This document shows positions 3,357-64,000 of a stretch of 64,000 nt of DNA, piece by piece (the first letter of the stretch is position 1; every line of letters starts with the position of its first letter). Location of the stretch: positions 682,001 to 746,000 of the forward strand of contig NW_026570286.1 in NCBI RefSeq assembly GCF_019649055.1, in the 5' to 3' direction. Origin of the DNA: Paramacrobiotus metropolitanus. Taxonomy: Eukaryota; Tardigrada; Eutardigrada; Parachela; Macrobiotidae. The notes below the pieces were generated by a model. It searched no databases. It was not told where the DNA came from and worked only from the letters and a program-made list of their open reading frames with translations. The position numbers and the translations under genes are program-made.

Positions 3357-5998
<2,642 letters not shown>

Positions 5999-6499: not shown

Positions 6500-7619
6500 T
6501 TACATCTTGTCAGCCTTTGGGTTGTCGCGCCAGATGCAGAAGTTCAGAGCGGTGGCCAAACTAAGCCAGGCCAGATAGGGGACCATCAGGTAGGAAGCCA
6601 CTTTGTTGATGGGATAGAAGGCGCCGATGCAGGCCGCCACGTTCAGCCACAACGCCGAGATTATGCCCAAACCCTACAGTGAATCATCCGTTAGATTGCT
6701 ATCAAGCGACGATGGTGGAAAATACTGAGCGGAGGATTCGAACGCGGTTTCTTCAACAACGCCGAAGATAACGGTGATGTGTAACTCACCCAGCCTGTTT
6801 GGTGGAGTTTGAAGAAGACGGGCGACCAAGCCCAGTTCAGCGCCAGCGATGAGCCATACAGCAGTAAGGGGACTTTAGCCACACCATTCAGCCCACCACC
6901 CTGACGCCACACCATCCAGGACGCCGCTCCCATGCCGCAGTACAATGTCGTCCACACTGTAATATTCAGCTAACTTACAAACAATTTAAATAAGTAATAT
7001 TAACTGAACAATTAGAAATAAAATAAAAAATAATTATTCATATCGAACTAGTAATTTAATATTAACTAAATTATTTAAATTTTATCTGACTTTTAAGTAC
7101 TTTGATTTTTTCAAATTTTGTAATTATTCAAATTTTAAATACGAATAATTTTCAAGTAGTCACGCTGCACAGAGAGAACACGCACCTGGACCGAAAGCCC
7201 AGTTCGGGGGTCTCCAAGACGGCTTCTTCAAACGCTAAAAAAAAACAGCATCGTAAATATAATGCTGTAAAAGCTATCGCACCACAAATTTTGAGATCAG
7301 TGATGATTTGACAGGTCTCGAAGGGAGATAAGGCATAAGCATTAAGCAGTGCTTGCGTACCTCATACCAACTGAACGCTCCTTCCACTTCGGTGCGCGTT
7401 AACAGGCCTCCTACCCATCCTCCGATGTTGGGAATGACCATACTGTAATGGATCGAATCAGTTAATACAGCCAGAGCTATGACGCAATCCAGAAAGCCCT
7501 TACGCGGGAAGAAGTTCCTGTCCGAAAACAGATGCCGTTATCGGCGGAAGAGGAAAGAGGCCGCGCACAGGCAACCTGTAGGATGGATCGATCTCGCGAG
7601 TTGCTACTACGCCCTTCAT
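6500..7619 (-). CDS. TSPO: Translocator protein TSPO, copy 1
   Basis: TSPO/MBR proteins are five-helix proteins of the outer mitochondrial membrane that bind cholesterol and porphyrins. Five exons: 7619-7504, 7442-7361, 7234-7186, 6956-6790 and 6673-6500, giving 195 residues. Family hallmarks are PNIGGW in helix 1, the loop [13 protein letters not shown] followed by [15 protein letters not shown] in helix 4, and the last helix [13 protein letters not shown] followed by FCIWRDN. The chosen ATG gives a roughly 30-residue N-terminal extension that includes FGQELLPA, matching TELLPA of the second copy at the same exon junction. Intron phases 2, 0, 1, 0 equal those of copy 2. The two genes lie on opposite strands on either side of the CRPPA gene. 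High confidence in family, moderate for the start. Confidence 0.93.
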
Positions 7620-8128: not shown

Positions 8129-9626
8129 ATGTTTGAGCCACCGGTGCGCGATGTGGTCGTTATTTTACCCGCTGCTGGGACCGGAGAACGCTTCTCCGCC
8201 AGCACGGAGAGCGAAAACTCTTCCAGCCCGAAACAGTTTGTCATTGTCGGTCCGAACAGTCTTCCGCTCTTCATTCACACTGTGAACGCCTTTAGCAGGT
8301 AGAGATTTTGAGAGCCATACAGTTTTGCCTGCATACACATTGCATTGATGGCTCTGACTGGGTTGATGTGGATGTGCAGAATTTCTTGGATCAGCAAAGT
8401 GGTCCTGCTGGTGGCTGACAACCAGCTGGAGTTTGTGCAGACCACGATTGGCAGCGCGGCCAGTGTGGAATCCGTCACCAAGACGGTCGTGGTAGCTGGC
8501 TGCAGTACACGGCATCGCACCATCCGCAGCGGAGTGAATCTTGTGGCCAAGATGGTTCCGCGACCAGAAGTGGTGATTGTGCACGATGTGGTCAGGCCGT
8601 TTGTGGAGGAGAGCGTCTGCAAGAGCGTGGCGATGGCTGCTAAATCTCACGGGGTAAGATAACTGGATAATGCATACAGAATAATTTTTCCAGCTAGCGT
8701 TCCTTTGGTGCATATATAGAGAATATGCTTGCAGCAAAGATTGGTACGTGTATTCGCTATATGTACGTGTGTATGTACTAATTTATACTGTATCTGTATA
8801 CTCTTTGATTTTAACTATAGCCGTAATTTATATCGTAGACTGATTGATTAATTAACGACAGCCGTAATTTTTGCGACGTAATATGGTGGAAGCTAATTCA
8901 TTTGGATTTTGTGAATTTGCGTGTCATGATAAGAGCCAGTTAATGCTTGATGCTTATGCACCTTGTCGTTGAATTTCAAGTTGAATTGTCAGCATCTCTT
9001 TTGTAGGCAGCTGGTGTGTATGCTCCATTGGTATCCACGGTTGTCAGTATTGACAACAAAGGCTTCTTAGCTGACGTCCTTCCGCGCTCTCAATTTTTCG
9101 CCAGCGAAATGCCACAGGGATTCCTTTTCGCCAACCTCCTACTGGCCTACACCAGCGCAACGGAGGAAGAACTGGAAACTGGAACGGAATGCTTGGCGCT
9201 GGTCAAGACTTACGCCGGCTGCCATGTGAAAATGCTTCCCATCAATCCCAATCAGTATTACAAAGTAAGTAAGAAATTACTGCAGTCTGTTAAAATTTTT
9301 TATGCTGTCGTTGTTGAGTAGAAGATGGCCAGGTTTAGAAAACATATTGCTCATAGAGCATGTTAAAGAGTTAACTTAATAACAACATCAGAACATTGTG
9401 CTGAGTTTATGATGGAGTTGGTCATTTCGTTGATGGCGAAAGTTTGTGTGTGGACATGCGCTTCTCAATGCAGGTTACATATGAACGGGATCTCTTAGCA
9501 GTGGATGCCATGTTGAAGCAAACACCGCCGGTTCTGAAATCGAGTAGTTCGTCGGATAGCTTTGTGGTGGACGCTCGCCAGGCTACAGTGTGCAATCGCT
9601 GTAATGCGGAGACAGATTACCCGTAA
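8129..9626 (+). CDS. CRPPA: IspD-family cytidylyltransferase, CRPPA (CDP-ribitol pyrophosphorylase)-like
   Basis: In animals this family makes CDP-ribitol from CTP and ribitol-5-phosphate for ribitol-phosphate addition to alpha-dystroglycan. Animals lack the MEP pathway, so the IspD role is unlikely. Exons 8129-8298, 8380-8653, 9007-9264 and 9474-9626 give 284 residues. The nucleotide-binding start reads VVVILPAAGTGERF and is followed by SPKQF, the family's conserved Gly-rich loop and Lys. VIVHDVVRPFVEES corresponds to the HDAARP motif, and PQGFLFANLLLAY is the substrate-side segment. The length is near that of bacterial IspD and shorter than human CRPPA (about 450), so the vertebrate C-terminal extension is missing. 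AATAAA lies at 9887-9892. The gene sits between the two TSPO copies. Confidence 0.88.
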
Positions 9627-12258: not shown

Positions 12259-15179
12259 TCAGTCGGAAAAAGGACCAAACGGGCACATCACGCAAATATC
12301 CCGGTACATCTTCAACGCCTGGACAAATGGCAGGCCGAATCGCAGGACGACGTCATCGCGGGTCAGGAGAATTAATGCTGCACCATCGATGCACTAAACC
12401 AAAATGACAACAATAAATTTTTCACAGTTAATCGTAAGATAACTTTCTGTAACCAACCTGTTTTCGGATAACATCCGCGTAAATATGCGATCCCTGATCG
12501 GCAAATTTCTTTGCCACATCCTCCACCGTCCATGATTCGATCTCTTTTATCAGTTGCGGTGTCTTTTTGGGGGGTAAACTGCGCTGGAAGGCTTCGACGG
12601 CACGACGAATAACGTTCTCGCTCTCCATCTTCTCGCCGAAAATTTTGGCATCTGATTTAAACCTAGCAACAACAACTGAGTAAGCAACTCTTGCAATACT
12701 GTAAAAAAAAAGCTTCTTAATTCGTTTGCAAAAAAATACACGCGATCTGCAAGTGGAAGGCGATAACCACGCTACCGATACTGGAAACAACGTACGGAAA
12801 ATCAAGTTCTGTCCGTGTGAGTCCGTTTGGGACGGGGGATTCTGATTTCACTTCAGCTAGAAACATTTAAATAATTAAATTTAAGCCCACACAAGTTGAC
12901 AACACGTGACAATATATCGTGCCCAATTGCCCATTGATCGCGTTAACCAAACGATCGCATTCTGATGACTTTCGGGTATACTGGATGTACCTGTCATAGT
13001 CAACAGGTCGTTTTTCATAGCATCCGTGCTGGCAGCTTCCGCTGCACGCCGTAAAAGGCATTCCCCGCATGTCCACGCTGCAAACAGAAACACATGCTAC
13101 CGAAATTAACCAACCACAAATGTCGCGAACTTCTTACCATCCATCACCTCGAACGCCGAGGCCGGATCAACGGGTGGATTATGGCAGTTCATGTGATACG
13201 CGTTATCGCAGCCCACACACAGCATACACAGCTGCAACGTACTTGTACCATGGTTACGCGAAAAATGTTTATAACACCGACACAGCCTAGTGATACCGAA
13301 CAACATTTACCCCATTTTGCCCCAGCTTTCCCGTGCCACATGCCTTGCATGTTTTGCACTTTAAACAGGTGAATCGACCTTTCTGAAGATCCACAACCTC
13401 CTGCGAGTATGCTCCACATTTTGGATGTGCTATCAAACGTTAACGACTCAGTGTGACGAACCGTGCGCGAAATTCGCCTGGAAATAGGATAAAAAATAAA
13501 CAAAACCTTGCTGCTACTTACTAGCATAGTTGCAGCCTGCTGCTGTGCATTCGAGTAGTACTCCGGACTGTGCAGCGTCCATGCCAGCATCCTCATAACA
13601 TTCTCCACAGAACCTTGTCCGCTGTTTCTTTCGCAGCGCCATATCTAAAAGGCCCGACCGTGTCCCGTTCATCTTCCTCTGCAATCACCGCAACCATACA
13701 TCTCTCGTAATATTTCCGGCAATTCCATAATAAATTCATAATCCAGGAGGAGTTCGTCAATCTCAAAACCCAGCATGCAGTACAGTATGTTGGTGAATGC
13801 ACTTACTTTTGCTGGCACTTCGCAAGGTGCATCTTCTGCGTTGGCCTTCATGGAGATGCCTTCTTCCTTATTCTTCAGCAACGGCATGCAGCCTTGTCGC
13901 TTGATTTTCATGCTGTTGTCGACCCGATCGGACAATACGAAGGAATTATTCGCCAGCTGAACTAGGCGCCCACAGTCCACCTCACGCAGCGTACACTTCT
14001 CCAGTTGTTCACCGCGTAATTTGGTCTCTGGATACAGGGAAGTGATGTGTGCCTCCAGCTGCTCTAAGTAAACGGAATTGGCGCTGGTGCTGGGTGGAGA
14101 TTTATTAGGGGATGATGAATCGCTGGTTGCTCCCGATAATGTCTGCACAGCTTCCATAATACGATCGCTGGTGCTTACGGAATTGTGCAGAATACCGTAC
14201 TGGACGGCCAACGGCGATGTGTCTGAAGAAGGCAATTTCCCAGTATGCCAGATATGCGTGCATGCAAAATGCCAAAAATCAAAGAGCACGTAATAAATCT
14301 AGCTGCCGTTGCCTGAACCCACTCCACGCAGCTTTTGACAAGTCGTTAATTTTTCAATGATTCTGTCTGCAATTCCTGAAAATCGTTCTTCAAAACAAGG
14401 CATATGCAAAAGCGAATGTTAAGGAGTATGTAAAATATAGAGTAGTATGCAAATAAGTATGTAAAATTAAAAATACTGTACTCGTACAACGAAACATTTT
14501 TAGGTGTACGTGTTGTGTATTGCACACTGCACAGCCGCCGCCCCTGGTCTGGCGCCCAGACATTATGCAATTTAAAATTTAATCGCTTAAGTAAGCGGCT
14601 ACAATTTTAAAATGAAAAAGGGGCACGGCAAGGTCACGAGGAACTATATAGCGGTGTCCCGAATTTACCGTAATAACGGCTAAATTAAACAGTTTTTATT
14701 CCCGACGTCAAAACCAGTGCTACTAATGTGAGGTGTATCACTGTACGATCCACCCCTCCACCTAATATCAGGGGTACGTGTACGCCTTCCAGCCGTGAAA
14801 CTCCCGAACCGCGCGGCATCACCGGGGTGCCGCGGCTCGGAATCGTGCTCGTAGCGGTGCTTACCCGCAGAAGAAGGTGCATGCGCCCACTTCGCCATGT
14901 CCCGGTAGGAGATGGATCCCTTAAAGTCCACCTGGAAGATGGAAGACACGACGTATGAAAGCCATACTTGTACGAGCCGCGGCTCCGGCGGTTTACCTTA
15001 ACCACTGCGTCTTCGTCGACTAAACGCTCCAGATCCTGCATCACATCCGCCTGGTTGACACGAAGGCTTTTAGCAACTAGTTGAGCAATTCGCGGTCCAT
15101 CCGGTCGCGTTTTACGCTGACGGAGATGCTCAATGGCGCCGAGAATCTCCTGCCGCCATTTAGAAGGCTGGTCTGCCAT
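12259..15179 (-). CDS. Chromatin protein: SAMD1-like winged helix, double PHD finger and SAM domain
   Basis: Nine exons: 15179-14997, 14931-14865, 14222-13807, 13678-13522, 13429-13311, 13231-13138, 13077-12991, 12651-12458 and 12393-12259, giving 483 residues with every phase matching. Residues ~5-75 form a SAMD1/KAT6-type winged helix (WRQEILGAIEHLRQRKTRPD, then KVDFKGSISYRDMAKW), a fold that binds CpG-rich DNA in those families. A polar linker follows. A tandem PHD pair comes next: CGECYEDAG, ATHPKCGAY, FTCLKC, then CKTCKACGTG, CVGCDNAYHMNCHNPP, AWTCGEC, like the double PHD finger of DPF and KAT6 proteins that reads histone H3. The C-terminus is a SAM domain (ESWTVEDVAKKFADQG, IDGAALILLTRDDV, FGLPFVQALKMY). 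No acetyltransferase domain is present. Role in chromatin is inferred. An upstream in-frame start at 15230 is not ATG. Confidence 0.8.
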
Positions 15180-15756
15180 CCCGCCGGTTTTCTGGCGCCT
15201 GTGCGCGGTTCGCTTGCGGTAGACGGCCAAAAATTATCGCTGGGTTGTTTTTTAAGTTACTCACGACGAGAGTATTTCGGCAGGAAAATATATGGATATC
15301 ATGCGAAAGGATGCGATTAATTTTGATATGCAGGTTTCGGAAAGATCAGAGGCATGCTGACATAAGTCACGTAGAGTAAAGGCAGTGCGGCAGCGCCAGC
15401 GGTTACTTGCATACTCGTACAGACACTGACACACAGCACTTGTATTGCACCGTATCACGCGAAGAGGGTGGAGCCTGTTCTACTTCCGGTCCGTTTCATA
15501 TTTTGAAAAATAAATCAAAAATTCAATAAGTTTATAGCTGGTACGCACTGTTTCGATAACTTTTACTTGATTATGAATTTTACCAGTCAGCTGTGTTATA
15601 TTTATTTTTGCTCAGATTCAGACTCTCTTTAGGCCAGCATCGTCCAAAGAGTTCGGCAAATACGGAGCAGCCGAGAGGCACTTGGAATCGGGGTCTGTAG
15701 TATAGAGTGTAGATGCTTTCATTCTGGGATCGGGATCTTTCAGCCGTGCTACAATT
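15180..15756. promoter_or_regulatory. Divergent spacer between the PHD-SAM gene and MITD1
   Basis: Head-to-head intergenic region of about 0.58 kb, presumably with both promoters and 5' UTRs. No recognisable element beyond this. Confidence 0.45.
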
Positions 15757-17200
15757 ATGGATAATGCACCATCTTCCGCGACGGCAATTGATCCAAGAGC
15801 CTTAGCTGTTTTGAGGACGGCTGTGGAGGCTGAACAGAGCAAGCGTTATCTTTTTGCCGTGGATTTATACAGCGAAGGAATTAAGTTACTAATTGATAAC
15901 TGTCGGGGTAGGTACAAATTTTTAACTGTACTTCTACATATGATTAGGGATCATTAGGCACTCTTAAGAGTCTAATTATATCGTTTTATGGTTTGACGAC
16001 AAAGTGGGAACTCAGAAGTTACACAAAATGCAGAAAGCTTTCACTGAAGCGCTGTCGTATCTGTAGCTACGACCAATGAGAAAATCAAAGCGGCGCTGAA
16101 GGAAAAAATCCGTCAGTATCTGGAGCACGCTGAAGCACTGAAACGAACGGTAGAGCAGGAGAAGAAAAAGTCCCATGGCTACCACGAGCAGTTGGTTATT
16201 CAAGAGAACGGCACGGGATTCGGGCTGGAGAGGGTGTTTGGACCGTATTTGGACGGGGAGCTGACCGAAGTGGAGATCGACGATGCCTATATTCGCCACA
16301 ATCATCAGGTATGATATGTAGTGAGTCCGTAGTAAAAATTAAACACCGTCACACTATGGCAAGATCGTTCGATGCCTTTTTAGACCTGCATTAAAGTATT
16401 AGAGCCGCATGCCTGGTTTATTTTATTTTACAGATACAGCTGTTCCTGAAATTCTGTGCCCTGATAATCAAAAAGTCTCCCAATGTGAAGCATATCCGAT
16501 TAAAGACGAGCTGCGATGGGGTAAGGCACTGACAAGTCTGGCTTATCTGTCTCTGTAGTTTTCTTTTTTGGTTTGAAGGATCCGGCAAAAAAGCATATTC
16601 AAGTCACCCGGCTGGATGAGATCCGTTTGAACCTGTTACAACGCGGCATCTTTTTGCTCATTGAATACTGCGATACGCTGCATGATCGCGAAATAAGGTA
16701 TGCTTTGGCTCCGTTCTGATTTTTCTGATATGCAGTAATCCCGAAGCCTAATGAAATTGCGCCATGGTCAGCGGCATTGTTCCGGCTAGCTGTACCTTGC
16801 TTTTGCCATTATTCGCGTTTCTTGTGAATTTAAAACTGACACTGCTGTACTGTCGATACTTAAGTACTACTTCGTATACAAGTTTATGCGTTCTTGGTAA
16901 TTGTAGTGAAATCGCGTTTCTTTGCAGTTCTCATTGGTATGTATAAATCGTTATGTCTGAATTTTCAAATTTGTTTTGTCTTATCGAAGGTTCGACAACG
17001 GTTGGATTATTAAGATCGGACGAGGTCTGGACTACTTCAAGAGAGCGGAACCGAATACCGTTGAGTTTTTTGAGCTGGATTTCCGGCCTTGCATGGCCAC
17101 GACGGTGGACATGATCTACAAGCCAAAGCGAGCGCCATTCCCATCCGCTTCAGGTCCATCCACTTCTGGTTCGGGTCGTGACATGAGCTCCCGGAGATGA
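15757..17200 (+). CDS. MITD1: MIT domain-containing protein 1
   Basis: MITD1 binds ESCRT-III tails through its MIT domain and membranes through a phospholipase-D-like C-terminal domain. It acts at the midbody in cytokinesis. Exons 15757-15907, 16067-16308, 16434-16520, 16579-16697 and 16990-17200 give 269 residues (human about 250). The MIT three-helix bundle covers residues ~12-85: RALAVLRTAVEAEQSKRYLF then AVDLYSEGIKLLID, and IKAALKEKIRQYLEHAEALK. The C-terminal domain has VFGPYLDGELTEVEIDDAYI, QLFLKFCALIIKKS and the strong block DNGWIIKIGRGLDYFK with FFELDFRPC. A 25-residue Ser/Pro tail is extra. The family call is firm; the start follows the first ATG before the MIT domain. Confidence 0.93.
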
Positions 17201-17969
17201 GCGAAAAAAATTTTAAGGCATTTTGTAGCTGGTTGAAAGTGGATGCTTTGATCTGCTTACCTTTAAAACACGACCTCGCCGAAGGTACGTGGATCTCGTC
17301 GGTTTCGGTTTACGTAATTTGATGCCTTCCATTTACTGAACCCGTAACGGTTGTGCTTTCACAAGTTTTGTAAATTTTTATCCTTTCGTACCATTTAGTT
17401 TTACTAACCATCGATTATTTTATGCACCCCTGATCGTTGTATTTACTTGCAACTTTATTTTTATAACTTTTTGATAACGAAGTTAATGAAATACAGATAG
17501 AAGTATACTGAGTTACTGACGTATGCAGTACTGCGTACTAAACGTACCGGTGCGTGCACCAATTACAAAATCTCACAAACATCAGCGGCAAGAACGATCT
17601 CCGAATTCAGCTTCATTAGATTTAATTTTATTACATACCGGAACACTACTGTAATCAAATGCGGATGGCAGTCGATAAAATAAAAATAACAATGCTTGAC
17701 TGTGTCAAGGTGACTGTGTCATGCCAATGGGGGCAAATTGTACAGAATCGGCGCAATCAATAACAACACCATAGCGACTAGCATGCCAAAGTCAAAACAA
17801 AAAGGTCCAGATCTCATAATCCGAAAGAAATACAAGGATTGTCTGAATTTTCAAGGGAAAAAGGTTTCATCAACCATGTGCTTGACTGCTTGTAACAAAA
17901 AAAGATGGTTCGTATCAACCAGCATCGGTCCAGGAGAGGTAATTCAGGTAGGCAAAAAATGCACTGGCT
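17201..17969. other. Convergent spacer between MITD1 and VAP
   Basis: Two 3' UTRs with AT-rich spacer. No other feature supported. A short doubled motif TGACTGTGTCA lies near 17700-17720. Confidence 0.4.
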
Positions 17970-19458
17970 TCACAGAAAACTGCGGAAGAAATATACACCA
18001 ACGTAGACAATCACAAAGAATATCCCGGCAGCAATCAGATTCCACTGCTTCTTCAACAATGGCACCTCCTTGTCGAACTGTTGGAGAGCAATCAGACGGT
18101 CCACCTGGACATCGAAGCATTCAAAATAATTACAACAAAATCAAATTCTCGCAAACTCACTTTGGCATTAATGATTTCCAGCTTTTCCAAGACAATGGGT
18201 GGGATGCTGGAAGTGGCGTCGGTAGAGATCCTGTACTCTCCTTCAGACTGGTCAGACTTCGAGACCACGGAGCAGCGCACGCGGTGACTGTCGAGTTCCT
18301 CCGGAGAGCCATCCCGCTGCTGCATTTCATGCCAATAATCCAGCAGATCATTGGAGTCCTTGACGTAAGGAATGGGCGTGCTCATCACAAGAAACTTTTC
18401 TTTCTGCGCAGTCTTCAGAAAAGCTGTAAAATTATTGTAAAATATGTCAAGGTGACCACTCCAAATGTGCTTTTTCACTCGGTGCAAAACAATTTTGAAT
18501 TGCTTTTCATTCTGTGGACAAGCTTTTCCGGTTAATGAAACATCCATGATCTATCTGTTTCATTCCAGTTAATTCAAATAAAACGGATCCGATTGAAAAA
18601 ACCCACAGAAAATTAATTACGAAAAAACAAATACGAAATTTTCGTTGCCAAATGAACGGACGTACTGCTCTATGAATTTAGTACACATAAAATTAATCTG
18701 CATAAGGCAACTTTGTCGCTTTTGTTCATTTTTCAGTTACAGTGCGCTACCTGGGGGAATAGCGATTTCAACAGGTTTCGACTGTCCAGGCTCAATGCAT
18801 CCATAACTGGGCTTCACTTTGAACTTCTCAGGAGCGGTGGTTTTCACTTTAAACGCCACAATGCCATCGGTCACATTGGTCAGGTTGATAAAATCCGTGC
18901 TGTCGCGATCCTGGCCTTTATTTTCGAAGATGAGCTCTTCTCCTGGCCTAAGAACAGCGTGAACTATTAAACATTAATGGGAACAATGCTACAATCAATA
19001 CTGCATGCAGGATGCCTTTGACCCATCCAGCATCTGTCTATCTCAAATCTGTCAGATTGCATTGAAAAAAGTGTTACTAGTACCTGCAACGCATTAGAAG
19101 CCAGAGTAAAAAAAGGAAATTTAATCCATGGGTAAGAGTTAAGTACATCCTATACTGCACTTTGCTAGTTGCTACTTACTGAATGCTCAAAAATCGGCCA
19201 ACGAACGGAGGAGAATCCACTTCAGCAGATTCCGGAAGGCGCGCACGTGAAGTTGTAGGTTTGGAATTGAAAGTTGCTTGGATCTACGATAAACAGATCT
19301 AGATAGACAAAACATAAGCAAAATAATGTCGATCGAACCCATGTTATAGTTAAGAACTACAATGAGGTATTAAAGCGCAGAAATGAGCAACAGCAATCTC
19401 AGTAGCGTCAAAAGCCTGGATTTTGCAGTTTTCTTACCGTAGGCATGGCGTTGTTCAT
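17970..19458 (-). CDS. VAPA/B-like: VAP-family major sperm protein (MSP) domain membrane protein
   Basis: VAPs sit in the ER membrane and recruit lipid-transfer proteins carrying FFAT motifs. Exons 19458-19438, 19283-19180, 18947-18751, 18522-18161 and 18104-17970 give 272 residues. The MSP domain starts at PPFVGRFLSIQPGEELIFEN and carries the VAP signature FKVKTTAPEKFKVKPSYGCI, which lines the FFAT groove, ending at KEKFLVMSTPIPYV. A Ser/acidic linker and a short helical stretch (RLIALQQFDKEVPLLKKQW) lead to a C-terminal tail anchor (NLIAAGIFFVIVYVGVYFF) with only a few residues after it. A 21-nt first coding exon was inferred from phase and a GTAAG donor, so the first seven residues are less certain. 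Around 18435-18470 the strands between LHRV and KTAQKEK are longer than usual; an unspliced insert is possible. Confidence 0.87.
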
Positions 19459-27026: not shown

Positions 27027-27691
27027 GTACGAGGCAAGTGTCCCTTAAATTAATAGACGCGTTTTGCCTTACCATAAATTGACAACCTAAACCGCAATGT
27101 GCGAACCTGTCAGCCACCATGGGCTGGCAGCGTATAATACAAACGGTTGACTGCATTGCTGCCATTGACTTTATTAACATTAAAGTACGTAACATCCACA
27201 CTCGCATAAATCTCAACCGAGCCTACGAACTTACGTTCCAAATGATGGAAAAAAAATCTAGGAATTTTTTGGTACCTAGCAAGTAAGTTTTCATGGCAAG
27301 CAAGGAAAGTTATGAACGTTTGTGGTTCCTCGTAGACATAGCATAAGGTTCGTGCGAGGAGCCGTTGAAGAGGATCCTATGCTATGTCTACGAGAAAACA
27401 TAAACGCTCATAACTTTCTTTATTTGCCATGAAAACTTACTTGCTAGGTACCAAAAAATTCCCAGATTTTTTCTCCATCATTTGGAATGTTAATTTGTAG
27501 TTGTGACTGAAGTTAAAATGAGTTAAAATGTCGAATCAGTTAACGTCGAAGTCAATGGGAGCAATGCAGTCGCCATTTGTATTACCCGCTGCCAACCCAC
27601 GGTGGCTGCCAGGTTCGCACAATGAGTCTAGGTTGTCAATTTATGGTAAGGCAGAACGCGTCTATTAATTTAAGGGACACTTGCCTCGTAC
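27027..27691. mobile_element. Foldback element: 665-bp near-palindrome
   Basis: The left arm (27027 to about 27352) is the imperfect reverse complement of the right arm (about 27370-27691). Both ends read GTACGAGGCAAGTGTCCCTT in the outward-to-inward direction. Matching inner blocks include TTGACAACCTA, CCAAATGATGG, GGTACCTAGCAAGTAAG and CGTAGACATAGCAT. Arms differ by scattered changes and indels in the middle third. Fewer than 25 bp separate the arms. No ORF above background. A transcript would fold into a long hairpin. Confidence 0.85.
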
Positions 27692-50039: not shown

Positions 50040-51338
50040 ATGGATCTGGTTCGGATGCCATACAGGCACATCTTCTGTTGGCCCTTCCACAGCACATCTT
50101 TGAAATTGGCTGGAGGTTTTGTTCATAAAGTTCGTTTTATCACCAGCACGGACATAATACCAGCCAGGCATTTTACGAGTTGCTCACGATTCCCCACGCA
50201 GCCCCGTGCATCGCTGTGTGGCGTGATTTTCATACAACCGCGACGCTTCGTGTCCAGATCGCCAGGAGCCAGGAATTTCTACGATGTCCTGGAGATCAAT
50301 CAGCAGGCCAGTCCGGCGGATATTAAAGCCGCCTATTACAAACTGTCTAAACAGTATCATCCCGATATCAATCAGGCGGGCGATGCCGTCAAGAAATTCC
50401 GCGAGATTACCGAAGCCTACGAAATACTGGGCAACACGAAATCTCGCGAGACCTACGATACGAATTTGCGGGGTGGACACACCACGACAGATACCTCCTA
50501 TCAGTCGGGATCAGCCGCCAGACAGCGCAATCGGTACACGGAGACGGACTTCAACGATTTTGAAGAACGCTATCGGCAGTTCCGGGCGCAGGCGTTCGGG
50601 AGAAGGAAAGGCGCGGCACCGCCCACGGGCAAGACGGAATATTACGATTACGACGAATTTTATCGACAACATTACCAGGTAGGACAATCTCGATCTGCTG
50701 TGTACTGTAATGGGTAGATGTAACTGTTCCATTCTCGAAATGTAGGCGTTTCGAGGGGACAATCAGGAAATGCTCGAAGATACTGATTGGGTGTAAATAA
50801 AATGCCAAAAGTAAGAATTTCTTTAAAAAACTTGTGGGCAGATCTCTGTAAATATTTGCAATTGCGTTTTTTCTTATATTTAAATTTTAAGTTTTCTTAG
50901 CGCCGATTGTTCTTAACTGTACATGACATTCTTTCTAGTAAAAAGTGCACTTTGCAGGATACAAGGGCGCGAGCGTATAACGAACAGCGCTGGCGCGAAA
51001 TGAACGAGTATTTACGATACCAGCAGTTCTCCGAAACACTGAGGACGTCGAATGTTCGGTGGCGGCTTTTAATCATGGCGATGTTGTTCATGTCCATGAT
51101 GATTGTAATGTTCGATGCAACGATCAACGAGATGCTCACGCCGGACGACCGGGTCCGCATTCGTCTGGAAAGGGAGCGTTGGGAAAGGGAACATATGGGG
51201 CGAATGCGGTTGATGCGCGAGGAGGTGATCCAGCGACATCACGGGAACACTAATAACTCTTCCAGAGTAGTTATTCAGGAGCAGAACGATGATGGACAGC
51301 GGAACAACACACAGGAAACCGCTGTACCAAATCCTTGA
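50040..51338 (+). CDS. DNAJC30: Mitochondrial J-domain protein DNAJC30
   Basis: DNAJC30 is a mitochondrial inner-membrane J protein linked to ATP synthase and complex I turnover in mammals. Exons 50040-50678 and 50958-51338 give 339 residues. The first ~75 residues are basic and hydroxylated with no acid cluster, consistent with a mitochondrial presequence. The J domain follows: NFYDVLEINQQASPADIKAA, then YYKLSKQYHPDIN with the HPD triad, KFREITEAYEILGN. Next is the DNAJC30-specific YYDYDEFYRQHYQ, a charged helix (AYNEQRWREMNEYLRY), and one membrane span (LLIMAMLFMSMMIVMF). Unlike human DNAJC30 (about 226 residues), an Arg/Glu-rich tail of ~80 residues follows the span. AATAAA lies at 51417-51422. 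Its neighbours are VPS37 and BUD23. Confidence 0.9.
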
Positions 51339-52023
51339 TTAAGGACCGGCTCTGTGATGTCTGTATTTTTCGGTGATAGGGATGCTTGAAGCATGATGGC
51401 ATCTGATCAGAATAACAATAAATGCGGTACATGGGAATTTGATGCATTTTAAATATGCAGTGTTGTGCAAAGACTAACGAATAAAAATGAATTCAAAGGT
51501 AACAAAGTAAAGTTGTGAAACTTGCTCCGTGATCACAAAGTGGTGGTTTTTGTTTATTCATGTTGTTGATAAGAGTTCTCAGATATCTAGTGTCAAAAAC
51601 ACTTCGTACGAATGTAAGAAAATATCCTGGATTTCGTTACTAGTTTACCACTTAGTATGAGTTTCGCAGATAATTGTGTATCATACTGAGAATTGGAAAG
51701 TAAACTTGTGAACTGACTTCTAAAAACGACGACAATCTCTTAGACTCTCCATACATACTTCTAATTCATAATACTGATCTTTATCCGGGGAATTTGACGA
51801 AATAGTAATCACCTCATAATGCCTGCACAACGCATGATACTTCTACATCAAAACAAAAGAAATCAGAACTATTGCATAGAAGGAAGTTTTGAAAAGTAAA
51901 AACACATCAAAAATGGAAAAATCATGGAGCTGCTTATGCCATGTATGTAAAACTTGTGACCAACATATCGACAAAGAAAACGCAAAAAGAAGTCATCAGA
52001 ATCATGTGTATTTATAATTGTCA
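51339..52023. other. Convergent spacer between DNAJC30 and VPS37
   Basis: Two 3' UTRs; the DNAJC30 AATAAA is at 51417-51422. No other feature. Confidence 0.5.
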
Positions 52024-53183
52024 TTAATAAAACGTCTGTTGACTGTTTGCAGATCCACCGCGGAGATACCGGTTAAACTTTTCGACTTTTATCGTTCGGA
52101 CATGGACTTCCGTTCGTTTCGGGATGTATTCCAACAGAAATGCGTCAATGGTTTTTTCTCCATCCACAAATTCTTGAGCCATTCTCTGTCAAAAAAGTAT
52201 ACTCGTGACAGTCGTGAGAAAGGTGGAACAGTTTCAAACATTTTTTTTCGCCGAAAACTTTAAACTAACATGCACTAAGATTAAGTTTGAGTACTGTACC
52301 AAGTTGAAACAAAACAAGCAATACGAGTACTGAAGTATAGTAAATTAGTAATCCAAACTTCACTTCATGCAAATAATTACGTGCAAGACAGCAAATGCAA
52401 AACTGCGCAAAGTGTGTAATCCTAAATCTATACGATATGGATTATGGACATATACACAGTAATGCAGGCCACAAGACGACTAACTTCAGAATCACTATCG
52501 GCATTCGCTGCCAGAATCCGCAAATTATCCAAAAGCAGATCAGGGCTTGACGGACCTCCCACGACAGCATCTGTAAATTTCAATATCTAAATTAAAATAT
52601 CAACGAAATGTTTGTTATTGTACACCGTACACGAACTCGCAACACACAGCATTTAGTGTGATATCGACGCATGTATTGGAATGCTTTATTAAGAACTAAG
52701 CATTTGTTTATGAAAAGTTGAAGAAGTCGATGAAAATTAAAGTTGATGAAAAATAAAAAATTTAATCGAGTATAAATCGAGATGAAAATTAAATCAAGTA
52801 TAAACTTAGGCTGTCTGTTTTACTGGTTACCGTTCCCTTGTGCACTTACCGTGTTGGCGTTTGGTTTGCTCGTATTCCTGTTGTTTATCACCGAGAACAA
52901 GATGAGAGCGATACAGGCGTTCCCGTGCCTCCTGCAATTCCCTTTCGCGTGCGAGATTATACTCCGCCATGCTCAGGTTTTCCGCTATTATCTCCTGTTT
53001 TTGGTCGGATAGTCGTATCAAATCCGCAGAGTCCAGTACGAGGGAATGCACGCGTTCCTCATTATCCACAAGCTGACGCAGTTCCTCGTTGGACAGATGT
53101 TTCAGGGTGTCGTAGCAGTCCAGCTGTTTAGCCATGTCCGCATATGATCTCGGCGGAGATGTGACCGTACGATTTGTTCCCAT
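52024..53183 (-). CDS. VPS37: ESCRT-I subunit VPS37
   Basis: VPS37 binds VPS23/TSG101 and VPS28 in ESCRT-I for cargo sorting at endosomes. Exons 53183-52850, 52570-52485 and 52185-52024 give 193 residues. The Mod(r) domain fills the protein: YDTLKHLSNEELRQLVDNEE, a long coiled-coil hairpin (IIAENLSMAEYNLARERELQ then EARERLYRSHLVLGDKQQEY), LLLDNLRILAANADSDSE, and the hallmark segment MAQEFVDGEKTIDAFLLEYI followed by PKRTEVHVRTIKVEK. The protein stops soon after, so the Pro-rich tail of vertebrate VPS37B/C is absent. The donor of exon 2 is the weak GTTAGT, chosen because it restores phase and alignment. It is head-to-head with BUD23, and their start codons are about 0.9 kb apart. Confidence 0.9.
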
Positions 53184-54084
53184 TTCAAGAATTCACGAAT
53201 TTCAGCAACGAACAAACCCGGGATTTACTGAGCAAAGCCAGAATCGTTCACAAATACTCGGTCAGATACTGCTGTGTGTCGTCAACAAGAAACTAGGACG
53301 AGATGGATAAAACTAAAATAAACACTTAACCGGATTAGTGACTGTTGTCTATTTGCGGTTCAATCAATCGTTATGCCGTCGGTTCATAAAGTGGTCGAAT
53401 AATCTTGCCATACTATGCTTAATTAAATATGGAACTATGCTCAACAATAAAAACAAACTCAATCTTAATAAACTTCAAAAAAGCAGTATAATATATGAAT
53501 GAAAGTATTCTGACACTGAAATCAGAAACATTCCAAAATTTTCCTAAGCATTCAAATTTCAAAGGCTACTCGAATTCTATAGCTTGCAGTGAATTCCATT
53601 TCCACAGGACCACCACAATGGTATGATGGTTGAATGGAGCCGGAAGTTGAGACAGCGACACACAGCTGGTCTTCGCTCAGAAGCCAAAATTGGATTCATT
53701 TGCGATTTCTGAAAATTGCATTATTCTCGATCTATTTAAAAGTCAAATACTGACGTCTTTGATACTTTTTAATAAAAGAGTTTTCAAGTACGGCAGCCGA
53801 ACATTGTCTATGAGTGTAAGTAACTTATCCAGTGCGTGATGCGGACAGTCAACAGCGGACAGACCTGGCCAGTGTAGCTTGTATTTTGTGGATTTTCGAT
53901 TTCGTTCACTACGGCGAGTTTCGCGGTGTCAGCTCGACTTACCTTGTGTATTTCGCGTCGATTTCCGATACTGAGCGCATTATCATCCTTATATTCTGGA
54001 TCCTTATGCGCAGGAGAAACGAAGAGTCCTGCAGCAAACAGATCGCCGTTGTTTTTCGTTAACAGTCGGAAATTGTCCTTCGAG
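53184..54084. promoter_or_regulatory. Shared divergent region of VPS37 and BUD23
   Basis: About 0.9 kb head-to-head spacer, presumably with both promoters. No core motif is clear. Open frames near 53.8-54.06 kb lie in the likely BUD23 5' UTR and carry no domain. Confidence 0.45.
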
Positions 54085-56201
54085 ATGGCTGGACGCGGAC
54101 GGCCAGAGTATCAGGCCCCGCCAGAAATCGTAAGGCTCCACACTCTTCTTTTTCCGCGCAGCCAAGCTGATCAGTTTATCCCAAGTTGCGACAGTATTGT
54201 GCGTGGTTTGAGCGAACTCATAGTTTATATTGGTGTGCTTTTTACAGTTTTACAATGACGACGAAGCCAGAAAGTATACTTCCAAGTAAGTCACTTGGTT
54301 TGCAGTTCGCCACCTGGGGGGAACGAAAATGGCGTGTGCATTGAAATTTCTCATTGGTGTCTAGCTCGCGTATTATGGGAATTCAGGTGGAACTAGCGGA
54401 ACGCGCTCTTGAATTGCTCAGTTTGCCGGAAGGCAATCCGTGTTATCTGCTGGATTTGGGGTATATTCACCGTTTACGAAACATAAATTTAATTCGGTAT
54501 ATGTACGAGCATATTCAGTAATATTAATTCAGTTCAGCATAAAATTAATTCACTACAATTTTGAGAGCCACTGAATTAAGCCTTAATGTTCAGTGCTGAA
54601 TTCTCCGGATGATACTTAAATTTGGGGAATTTCACTTCATCCGACCTTGTCCGGCATAACACAACAAAAAATAGATTGATGTAAATTATTGTTGCATTTA
54701 TTTCTTAGGTAAGGAAGTGGTATCCGTCGATATGGGAATAATCCGTGAAAATGTACTATTTTGTGTCCTGATTATTTAGCTGTGGATCTGGTCTGAGCGG
54801 AGAAACCATAACGAATGCGGGCCATTTTTGGGTTGGCATGGATATCAGTTCCAGCATGTTGGGTATGCCTTTAACTTGTCTTTTGTATTTCCTTGGCTTG
54901 CGGTTTTTTATACTTTTTTCGGTTTAAACACCGTTCCCATAAAAGCGTTGTTTTTTGGAAAACAAATGTATCCAGTATTTGCGGAGCAGGGTATCATGAT
55001 TGATTGTTGGTTAGTTGAGTGTCTGAGTAATGTGATCGGGAACGGATTATGTTGTCAATTGCCGATTAAAGTGTACTCACTGGCGGCAGTGTTAATTTGT
55101 CTCGCACTGATTTTACTTTTCTCGGTAGATGTTGCCAGAGAACGAGAAGTGGACGGAGATCTAATTCTCAGTGATCTCGGCGAAGGTCTTCCTTTCCGTC
55201 CTGGGAGTTTTGATGGGGCGATAAGGTGTGGATGGAGGCCATACGTGAATCACTGACGCTTTACGTAATTTTTTTGGATTGTATTTCCAGCATTTCGGCG
55301 TTACAGTGGCTGTGCAATGCCGACAAAAAAGAGCACATCCCTTCGAAACGGTTATTCGCCTTTTTCTCATCGTTATACGCATGCTTGGTGAGATTTTGCG
55401 TTGTTTACAGACTTAAAGTGCATGCCAGTTTCAAACTTACGCTTTTTATCTTGTTGGTAGAGCCGTGGATCAAAAGCAGTCTTTCAGTTCTATCCCGAAA
55501 ATAGCGCCCAGGTAAACCGTAACATGCCAATAATTTTCATAACAAGCTTTACTGAAGTTTGAAACTTTGAACATTATGGTTTTGATTTTTGCAACTTATA
55601 CGACGTGTTTATCTGAATTTATTCGACAGGTTGAATTAATAACGCAACAGTCCATGCGAGCTGGTTTTACTGGAGGCTTGGTTGTGGATTATCCGAACAG
55701 TGCTCGAGCCAAAAAGTTAGAAAAATACTTTCTGCACAAATTAAATTTGCCCTGTGCAGTGTTGAACTATTGCATGACCTGGATTTTGTACTTGTAGAAT
55801 GTATTTAGTCCTATTTACCGGTGGTGTCAATCCCACTCTTCCGAAGGGCTTGGATGGAGCCGGTGAAAAGCCCGTTAGTAACAGGTACAAGCGCAATGGT
55901 CTTGCCACGGGAAACATTGTTTAATGCCTGAGTTAACGGAATAATACTGTATTGTCTTGTAGATCTGGACACGGAGATTCACGACCGTCCAAGCCACAGA
56001 AAAATACACGAGAATGGATTTTAGCCAAGAAAGACCGGAGACGAAGACAAGGACGGTAAGTTGTTTTTCATTCTGGTTCAGGTTTTATTTTTGAACTTAT
56101 GAAATAAGATAGCATTCTTAATGGATTCTGTTCGTTTCATTTGCAGAGATGTCAGACCTGACACGAAGTATACCGGCAGACATCGCCAGGGACACTTTTA
56201 A
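54085..56201 (+). CDS. BUD23: 18S rRNA (guanine-N7) methyltransferase BUD23
   Basis: BUD23 (WBSCR22), with partner TRMT112, methylates a guanine of 18S rRNA and supports small-subunit maturation in the nucleus. Eleven exons fit in 2.1 kb: 54085-54129, 54248-54285, 54365-54460, 54780-54862, 55129-55225, 55291-55387, 55461-55511, 55630-55715, 55798-55884, 55963-56055 and 56147-56201. They give 275 residues (human 281) with all phases consistent. Visible are [20 protein letters not shown] at the start, [17 protein letters not shown], the AdoMet motif [41 protein letters not shown] then QWLCNA, the post-domain block [15 protein letters not shown], and the basic tail [26 protein letters not shown] lies at 56274-56279. 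Introns are mostly 65-120 bp. Confidence 0.96.
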
Positions 56202-56556
56202 GCTTTTAGCTACTCTTTTCCAAGTCGTTGTCTGCTCTCTTTTATTTTAATGAACTTGAACCCGACTGAATGAAATAAAGCGCTGTGGTCTCCATGAACC
56301 ATGATTCGCAAAAAGCATCAAAGCCGAACATATTAAATTTTGGTTTCCATAATAACTTAGGCGCAAGAGACTAATGTCGAACCATTCGTAAAGAGCTGAA
56401 TACTTTCGACTCCGGTACAAAATTAGAATAATCGAGAAAAAGAAAAACAAACGCAGGAGGAATCAAAAACAAAAGCGTTCCTCAAAAGTCAGCGGCAACC
56501 GTAAGTATTGAAAATGGGATGGTTAACGCCCTCCACGATGTCAATAAATGCCAGAT
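56202..56556. other. Convergent spacer between BUD23 and RAN
   Basis: Two 3' UTRs; the BUD23 polyadenylation signal AATAAA is at 56274-56279. Nothing else. Confidence 0.5.
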
Positions 56557-58026
<1,470 letters not shown>

Positions 58027-62402: not shown

Positions 62403-64000
62403 CAAAACTGTCTGGGATTTCATGTGGCGGCTGGATCTTAAATTATTCTTAATCCTGCATGAGCTCATGGGCTCTCTGTAGTAGTAAATGTAATCAACAG
62501 CCTGAATACAAGGCAAAAACTAAGCACAACAGCATTTTATAGCTCTTATCATAATGACATATGATTGTGTTTCCCTGTAGTCCACTCTAAAGGGCTACAG
62601 CACAGTACAGGACAGTTTCAGCAACATTCGCATTGTTGGAATAATAATATCGAACGGCGCAGCCCTTGCCTTGTTGATGAAATGGGATAAAATCGTTGTC
62701 CCCTCTCTTCTCTCTCGATCTCTCTCTGGCTTGTTACATCGTTCCCTCCTTGGATCATCTAGTCAGTCAGTTTCCCTTGCGTTTCCGTCTGGGAACAGTA
62801 GTTTGGTGTGTGCTGCTCCTGTGGATTTGTCAGACTCTGGTTCGCAGTTGGCAAGAAAGACCAAAAAGAAACTTTCATCATATCATGGGGCTTACGTGCC
62901 CTTTACATAAACTGCCAGAAAGAAAGCGTGGCAGAAAGTGGTGCATTGCATCTTGAGTTTTGTATTGGAATTCGCTGACTCGTGACGGAATTCGTCTCAT
63001 TATGCAAGTGCCGTGACCGATGCTGATACGTTTTTCTCCCTACGGAACGGGAACAAACTGATCATTTGTGTTTCATTGCGGATTAAACCTGGGATCTTTC
63101 ATATCTGCTGTTGACTGTTGTATGATCTTGCTACTATTTCCAGCGGGAAAATGACTAAAGACCGGTTGACAGCCCTAAAAGCGGTAGGTGCTTGAGAAAA
63201 CGTTGACTCTGATTGCAGAACCGAAGAGTTTGAAAAATTTAGCAGGACGTTTTGATTTTTGCTCTTCTTATGTACGCCGCGTGCGTAGTTATGATTCTCT
63301 CTTCCTACTTCTGTGCGTTTAGGTCCTTTTTGTTTTCTAAAACGGTTGCTATTTGTTTTGAAATTATCATAAATATCTCCGAAAATAGCACTGCTTTTAA
63401 GTTGTTCGTTGTTTAATTGATGACCATTTCAGTACGCTCATGGTCATGTTATCGCTGGACATCCGTGCTGCCGTTGTGACGGTGTTGAGTGTGAGTTGCT
63501 GTACGACTTATAATGCAGTTTGGCGGAAAATAAAATATTCAGGAAAATAGAAAATTCATTATATTTTATACAAATAATAATAAGTTTCTGTATTTCAGTT
63601 CCATTTTCTGTGTAGTGTTCACGGTAGCAGATGCAGAGCTTTTATACGAAGTTTTAAATCGTAGCGTACGTATATAAAACATTATTTTTTAATACTTTTC
63701 AGTATTGTCAGGTACGATGCTTTGGTATATATTAATTTTTACATTATAAGGTGTGCAATAAAAACTTCAGCACCATATTATTGATTCGGTATTTGTATTA
63801 AACCCTCTAATCGAAAAAGGATTGCCAATTATGCCGTATTCAATGACTGGGTTGATTTAACGTTGATAGTTTGTAATTCCGACAACGAGGTTTTCTTTGT
63901 CAAAAACGGGAATTTTTTCGTTTTGAATTCTTATGGTTGAAAGGCAGCTATATCTGTACTCGTAGTCTTTAGTTCGAAGACGTAGGGACTGAGGAAAATC
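62403..64000. other. Gene-poor DNA at the window end
   Basis: No confident gene. A tentative exon at 63599-63665 is listed separately. Frames at 62.67-62.96 kb on the plus strand are unsupported. Confidence 0.4.
63599..63665 (+). CDS. Tentative exon, possible start of a Cys-loop ligand-gated channel
   Basis: Between a TTTCAG acceptor and a GTACGT donor, one frame reads SIFCVVFTVADAELLYEVLN then RS. A hydrophobic end of a signal peptide followed by ADAELLYEVL resembles the N-terminus of Cys-loop receptor subunits. A possible signal-peptide exon (from 63441, ending at a GTGAGT) does not match phase with it, and the rest of the gene would lie beyond the window. Very tentative. Confidence 0.2.

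What the first reader, a model, noticed from the sequence alone, without database searches (positions are those of the whole stretch)
50040..56201. DNAJC30-VPS37-BUD23 block matches the human Williams-Beuren neighbourhood
Seen: three adjacent genes, each identified from several family motifs, are DNAJC30 (+), VPS37 (-) and BUD23 (+) with nothing between. Known: in human 7q11.23, VPS37D, DNAJC30 and BUD23 are consecutive genes. Inference: this is an ancient bilaterian microsynteny block with one local inversion or order change. The three genes have unrelated functions (ESCRT-I, mitochondrial J protein, rRNA methylation), so shared regulation or constraint by overlapping promoters may have held them together. 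Here VPS37 and BUD23 are head to head, whereas in human DNAJC30 and BUD23 are.
Basis: partly seen in the sequence, partly recalled or inferred. Interest (0 to 1): 0.8.

Follow-up and report, generated by a model that had tools for sequence, protein, structure and literature searches.

The report
Ancient five-gene neighbourhood in an invertebrate
Five unrelated genes that sit side by side in this small animal genome (probably a tardigrade) are also neighbours in vertebrates, four of them as consecutive genes of the human Williams syndrome region, so they have probably stayed together since the common ancestor of both lineages.

Summary
The three genes are real: DNAJC30-like (+, 50040-51338), VPS37 (-, 52024-53183), BUD23 (+, 54085-56201). 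BUD23 is certain. VPS37 is not VPS37A, which lies on another contig with its UEV domain. DNAJC30 is likely but its J domain alone does not prove it. The block is longer than reported: next come RAN (-, 56557-58026) and STX1 (+, from 63151, past the window end). Human 7q11.23 reads VPS37D-DNAJC30-BUD23-STX1A (PMC10502022), and Stx2 and Ran are named together beside Piwil1 in gnathostomes (PMC8574217). So one run here holds the content of two vertebrate segments. With recalled human strands, two inversions of two genes each interconvert the orders. Random gene order makes the match very unlikely. Shared promoters around BUD23 are not supported: its head-to-head partner differs in human. Other human neighbours found (BCL7, Frizzled) lie on other contigs. 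No other animal genome could be searched, so depth, ancestral order and the reason for retention are inference.

The parts
50040..51338 (+). DNAJC30-like J-protein gene; exons 50040-50678 and 50958-51338, 339 aa
   Evidence: spliced model; DnaJ domain residues 79-140, E 8.7e-22; no other match in the genome search covered its C-terminal part
52024..53183 (-). VPS37 (non-A type) ESCRT-I subunit gene; exons 53183-52850, 52570-52485, 52185-52024, 193 aa
   Evidence: models; Mod_r E 1.9e-31; VPS37B 6vme_C E 4.8e-8
53184..54084 (.). 901-bp head-to-head interval between the VPS37 and BUD23 start codons
54085..56201 (+). BUD23 (WBSCR22) 18S rRNA m7G methyltransferase gene; 11 exons, 275 aa
   Evidence: model; human BUD23 6g4w_q E 5.9e-106; WBS_methylT
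56202..56556 (.). 355-bp tail-to-tail interval between BUD23 and RAN stop codons, with poly(A)-signal-like motifs for both strands
56557..58026 (-). RAN GTPase gene; coding exons 58026-57994, ~57912-57700, ~57449-57264, ~57111-56941, 56601-56557
   Evidence: Ran in PDB E 3.8e-122; exon positions; the other 15 of 18 matches in the genome are at 39% identity or less
63151..64000 (+). STX1 (syntaxin 1) gene: first coding exon 63151-63183; the other exons lie beyond the window, C66:746722-752729
   Evidence: Syntaxin-1A in PDB E 3.1e-89; Syntaxin and SNARE Pfam domains
51538..56638 (.). segment duplicated in inverted orientation at C66:668374-676802 (outside the window): decayed VPS37 and BUD23 copies and the stretch with the last exon of RAN

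Best explanation
The window holds a remnant of an ancestral gene neighbourhood, DNAJC30 - VPS37 - BUD23 - RAN - STX1, inherited from the common ancestor of this animal and vertebrates. Order and strands here: DNAJC30> <VPS37 BUD23> <RAN STX1>. In human, one paralogous segment keeps VPS37D> <DNAJC30 BUD23> <STX1A (7q11.23) and another keeps <STX2 RAN> (12q24); strands recalled. Inverting the DNAJC30/VPS37 pair and the RAN/STX1 pair turns the order here into one that contains both human segments. So the pairs, tail-to-tail DNAJC30/VPS37 and head-to-head RAN/STX, would have moved as units around BUD23. Shown: gene identities and positions here, and the published human and gnathostome neighbours. 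Inferred: common descent, the two inversions, and which lineage made them. Proposed reason for retention (inference, about 40%): compact pairs whose breakage would damage shared 3' ends or the shared RAN-STX1 upstream region, with STX1 as the tissue-restricted gene among housekeeping bystanders. Plain inertia is about as likely.
For: Identities: BUD23, RAN, STX1A, VPS37 Mod_r and VPS37B, VPS37A separate. No further gene is evident between the five: in the RAN-STX1 gap one stretch passed a codon-usage score of 5, against seven in the equally scanned BUD23 region (a weak filter). Human order MLXIPL; VPS37D; DNAJC30; BUD23; STX1A printed in a table of PMC10502022 (passages). [quoted passage not shown] STX1 was found by a family search made because STX1A is BUD23's human neighbour: of the 2 places that search found, 1 lies 13 kb from BUD23. 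Chance estimates. RAN has no close second copy.
Against: Only two lineages are compared and the species is inferred. 4 of 5 further family tests gave no linkage: BCL7 lies on C2, Frizzled on C28, C140, C11, C8 and C2, and WAC_Acf1 and HIP1 gave no match, which does not show absence. DNAJC30 orthology is not proven by sequence, and VPS37 lacks the proline-rich tail of human B-D. A second STX1-like gene lies on C80 (63-73% identical in two exons), so the STX1 label rests on similarity, not on a tree. STX1 shows about three one-base departures from an open frame, either assembly errors or damage.
Confidence: 0.8

Rival explanations
1. Slow-rearrangement inertia: the block is inherited, but no constraint holds it together. 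It survived because few breaks fell in a compact 21-kb stretch.
For: The five genes have no obvious shared function (recalled functions). Three of the four gaps are short (685, 901 and 355 bp). The head-to-head partner of BUD23 changed between lineages, so that promoter pairing is not kept.
Against: Two other human neighbours that could be found are on other contigs, so the wider region was rearranged while this core stayed. The RAN/STX head-to-head pair appears in both lineages although its gap here is 5.1 kb (human strands recalled).
Confidence: 0.4
2. Regulatory-block constraint: control elements of STX1 lie in or around RAN, BUD23 and VPS37, so separation is selected against.
For: One tissue-restricted gene among housekeeping genes is a known pattern of conserved metazoan microsynteny (recalled). 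RAN next to an STX1/2/3-type syntaxin is seen here and in gnathostomes.
Against: No conserved non-coding element was tested across species. In human 7q11.23 STX1A is not next to RAN.
Confidence: 0.35
3. Chance or secondary re-assembly of unrelated positions.
For: The three-gene comparison was post hoc, and only one invertebrate genome is seen.
Against: Random-order expectation about 2e-4 for any human triple and about 1.2e-7 (2.3e-7 with two STX1 copies) for four in five. STX1 was a prediction tested afterwards and met, one of three families tried in that turn.
Confidence: 0.03

Closest known systems
Human 7q11.23 (Williams-Beuren region) segment VPS37D-DNAJC30-BUD23-STX1A
   Same: The same four genes in one short run; tail-to-tail VPS37/DNAJC30 (human strands recalled)
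   Different: Here RAN lies between BUD23 and STX1; the DNAJC30/VPS37 pair is inverted relative to BUD23; BCL7 and Frizzled relatives are on other contigs; MLXIPL and TBL2 relatives were not sought
Gnathostome Stx2-Ran neighbourhood (human 12q24.33, band recalled)
   Same: RAN beside an STX1/2/3-type syntaxin
   Different: Of the other vertebrate neighbours only Frizzled was sought, and it is elsewhere; RIMBP2 and PIWIL1 were not sought
Conserved metazoan microsynteny blocks (kind of feature; recalled)
   Same: Unrelated genes kept adjacent over long times
   Different: Depth judged here from two lineages only

Membership tests
BUD23 / WBSCR22 | Methyltransferase core plus WBS_methylT C-terminal domain, full-length match to human BUD23 | tested here: met
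VPS37 B/C/D type | Mod_r domain without N-terminal UEV domain | tested here: met
   VPS37A with UEV is a different locus; definition from PMC4007767 passages
VPS37 B/C/D type | C-terminal proline-rich region | tested here: not met
   The model ends 20 residues after Mod_r with no proline-rich tail; a missed exon is not excluded. I therefore call it a non-A VPS37 and do not file it under B, C or D
DNAJC30 | J domain with HPD motif | tested here: met
   HPD in the sequence
DNAJC30 | Basic N-terminus and one hydrophobic C-terminal segment (defining layout recalled) | tested here: met
   9 R, 2 K, 4 H against 2 D, 0 E in 75 residues; segment 251-269, mean hydropathy 2.15
DNAJC30 | J domain closer to DNAJC30 than to other J proteins | tested here: not met
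   2yua ranks 28th of 55 PDB matches. J domains discriminate poorly, but on this test it is 'DNAJC30-like', not a proven member. The C-terminal FYxxHY stretch like human DNAJC30 is recalled
RAN | Ran GTPase, near full-length match | tested here: met
   (residues 9-200); acidic DEDL end in the last exon
STX1 | Syntaxin N-terminal domain, SNARE motif and C-terminal anchor, best match syntaxin-1A | tested here: met
   one exon left as X in the query; no tree against STX2/3/4
Ancient bilaterian microsynteny block | Same genes adjacent in a protostome and a deuterostome | tested here: inconclusive
   Adjacent here and in human or gnathostomes, but that this genome is a protostome is inferred from its size, not shown
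Ancient bilaterian microsynteny block | Adjacency in further phyla | not testable with these tools
   No animal genome collection on hand

The most novel reading that the evidence does not exclude
This genome keeps a near-intact ancestral bilaterian five-gene block, DNAJC30-VPS37-BUD23-RAN-STX1, that vertebrate whole-genome duplication split between 7q11.23 and 12q24. STX1's regulatory landscape, spread over RAN and BUD23, is what held it together, so part of the Williams region's layout predates vertebrates and is functional.
Probability: 0.25. Interest if true: 0.65.

Novelty: new member of a known kind. Interest (0 to 1): 0.5.

Why it matters
It gives the Williams-Beuren core a pre-vertebrate history and joins two human paralogous segments (7q11.23 and 12q24) in one invertebrate locus. 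That makes testable whether STX1 regulation keeps housekeeping neighbours in place. The nearby decayed inverted duplicate of VPS37-BUD23 shows one way in which pair inversions inside such blocks could arise.

Tried and rejected
Promoter sharing between VPS37 and BUD23 as the binding force: rejected as the main reason, because the partner differs in human and the interval is not unusually conserved between the two copies.

VPS37 as VPS37A: rejected.

A wider conserved neighbourhood: BCL7, Frizzled, WAC_Acf1 and HIP1 gave no linkage (the two without any match do not show absence). In the listing of higher-scoring ORFs to the contig end at 804308 I recognised no further 7q11.23 gene by eye. That filter (45 aa or more, score 9 or more) also missed the exons of BUD23, so it is no proof of absence.

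Literature: ten searches. Eight concern the block or synteny; concern the species and VPS37. By titles and abstract starts no listed paper describes this block outside vertebrates. PMC5663559 and PMC7954600 were opened for passages and gave nothing used here.

Cross-species check by search: no animal genome collection was on hand. The viral, phage, plasmid and prokaryote collections were not searched. Structure prediction was not used.

The copy as an assembly haplotype: thought unlikely. Synonymous sites differ by about 16% and both copies sit on one contig.

Full report
What was checked. The window is G000:C66:682001-746000 of a 169.8-Mb, 533-contig genome. The size fits the reported 170-Mbp genome of the tardigrade Paramacrobiotus metropolitanus (PMC11191345, passages), which is inference only. 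I built spliced models for the three genes (ends checked) and searched them in Pfam and PDB. BUD23 is certain. VPS37 is a Mod_r protein. The DNAJC30-like gene is a J protein with a basic N-terminus and one C-terminal hydrophobic segment. Its DNAJC30 name rests on that layout, on position, and on a recalled C-terminal motif, because its J domain is closer to many other J proteins in PDB than to 2yua (28th of 55). In a search of the genome with this protein, 2 of 6 matches are the gene itself and the other 4 cover only the J-domain part (19 candidates scored).

VPS37 type. The Mod_r search found 4 matches, 3 above cut-off: the window gene, its decayed copy, and one on C34. The C34 gene has an N-terminal domain that matches human VPS37A UEV (8e22_X, E 7.9e-22; Pfam UEV E 3.1e-5, below its cut-off). 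Its Mod_r part matches VPS37B weakly (E 0.016), against 4.8e-8 for the window gene. PMC4007767 (passages) gives UEV as the mark of VPS37A and proline-rich tails as the mark of B-D. The window gene has neither. The fourth match, on C13, is below cut-off and was not followed.

The block is longer. The next gene is RAN (Ran in PDB, E 3.8e-122; the other 15 of 18 matches in the genome are at 39% identity or less). Because STX1A follows BUD23 in human, I searched syntaxin, together with two other families of the human region. Of the 2 places found, 1 lies at C66:751009. Its gene matches syntaxin-1A (E 3.1e-89), its first exon is at window 63151, and its last exon ends at C66:752729. A protein search found related syntaxins also on C80, C42 and C128. 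Gaps: DNAJC30-VPS37 685 bp stop to stop, VPS37-BUD23 901 bp start to start, BUD23-RAN 355 bp stop to stop, RAN-STX1 5,124 bp start to start. In the RAN-STX1 gap a codon-usage scan gave one stretch at score 5 or more, against seven in the BUD23 region scanned alike. The filter is weak, so a small-exon gene there is not excluded.

Human comparison. PMC10502022 lists MLXIPL; VPS37D; DNAJC30; BUD23; STX1A in order (passages). PMC8574217 states that Rimbp2, Stx2 and Ran flank Piwil1 in all gnathostomes (section 12 read; figures not held). Human strands, and VPS37B on 12q24.31 and VPS37C/STX3 on 11q12, are recalled. With those strands, inverting DNAJC30/VPS37 and RAN/STX1 here gives VPS37> <DNAJC30 BUD23> <STX RAN>, which contains both human runs. 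They assume about 25,500 genes (30 per 200 kb) and 20,000 human runs, and do not count RAN.

Limits of the neighbourhood. Of five further families tested, one (syntaxin) is linked. BCL7 is on C2, Frizzled on five other contigs, and WAC_Acf1 and HIP1 gave no match, which does not show absence.

Inverted duplicate. Window 51538-56638 matches C66:668374-676802 in inverted orientation in three pieces of 82.9, 80.0 and 75.0% identity, the last two parted by a 3.4-kb insertion with a reverse-transcriptase ORF. Edge to edge the copies are 57 kb apart. Exons are 88.2-100% identical, introns 74.3-91.1%, the VPS37-BUD23 interval 81.0%. The VPS37 copy has an in-frame stop and a 5-base gap. The BUD23 copy has a changed donor site after exon 6, insertions or gaps in exons 10 and 11, and two stops in the window's frame. 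In that comparison the last 3 of 193 VPS37 codons were left out and 2 and 3 codons were set aside for gaps. Together pS is 0.160 and pN 0.015. If the copy had been neutral from the start and the window copy fully constrained, about 85 non-synonymous differences would be expected; 19 were seen, stops included (a simple count). So the copy was probably constrained for most of its life and decayed recently. DNAJC30 is outside the duplicate, and of RAN only the stretch with its last exon is inside.

Mechanism. Descent from a shared block is well supported. Retention is open. The BUD23 head-to-head partner changed between lineages, so shared BUD23 promoters do not explain it. RAN/STX head-to-head and DNAJC30/VPS37 tail-to-tail are the pairs that both lineages keep (human strands recalled). 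Poly(A)-signal-like motifs on both strands between BUD23 and RAN suggest overlapping 3' ends. Regulatory constraint by STX1 and plain inertia are about equally likely. Inverted duplication followed by loss, caught half-way next door, is a plausible route for the pair inversions.

Noticed in passing
C66:668374-676802 (L001), against window 51538-56638: Inverted, recently decayed duplicate of the VPS37-BUD23 pair with a reverse-transcriptase element inserted beside the VPS37 copy.
   Followed up: yes
window 56205-56640: The stretch after BUD23, with the last RAN exon, is about 95% identical between the two copies although synonymous sites differ by about 16%; gene conversion or hidden constraint.
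   Followed up: partly
L005 about 4595-4860 and 6640-6660: STX1 shows about three one-base departures from an open frame, near short runs; assembly errors or damage.
   Followed up: no
C66:658626-661211 against 681221-683321: Direct repeat 96-98% identical, a recent duplication reaching into the window start.
   Followed up: no
window 27027-27691: Imperfect 665-bp palindrome, 80% identical to its own reverse complement.
   Followed up: no
window 8312-9318: IspD-like ORFs on +, perhaps the CDP-ribitol enzyme CRPPA (name recalled).
   Followed up: no
window 14688-18973: SAMD1-type winged-helix ORF, MIT/MIT_C ORF (MITD1-like, name recalled) and major sperm protein domain ORF.
   Followed up: no
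G000 C34, about 1184800-1187000 (L002): VPS37A gene with divergent UEV domain.
   Followed up: yes
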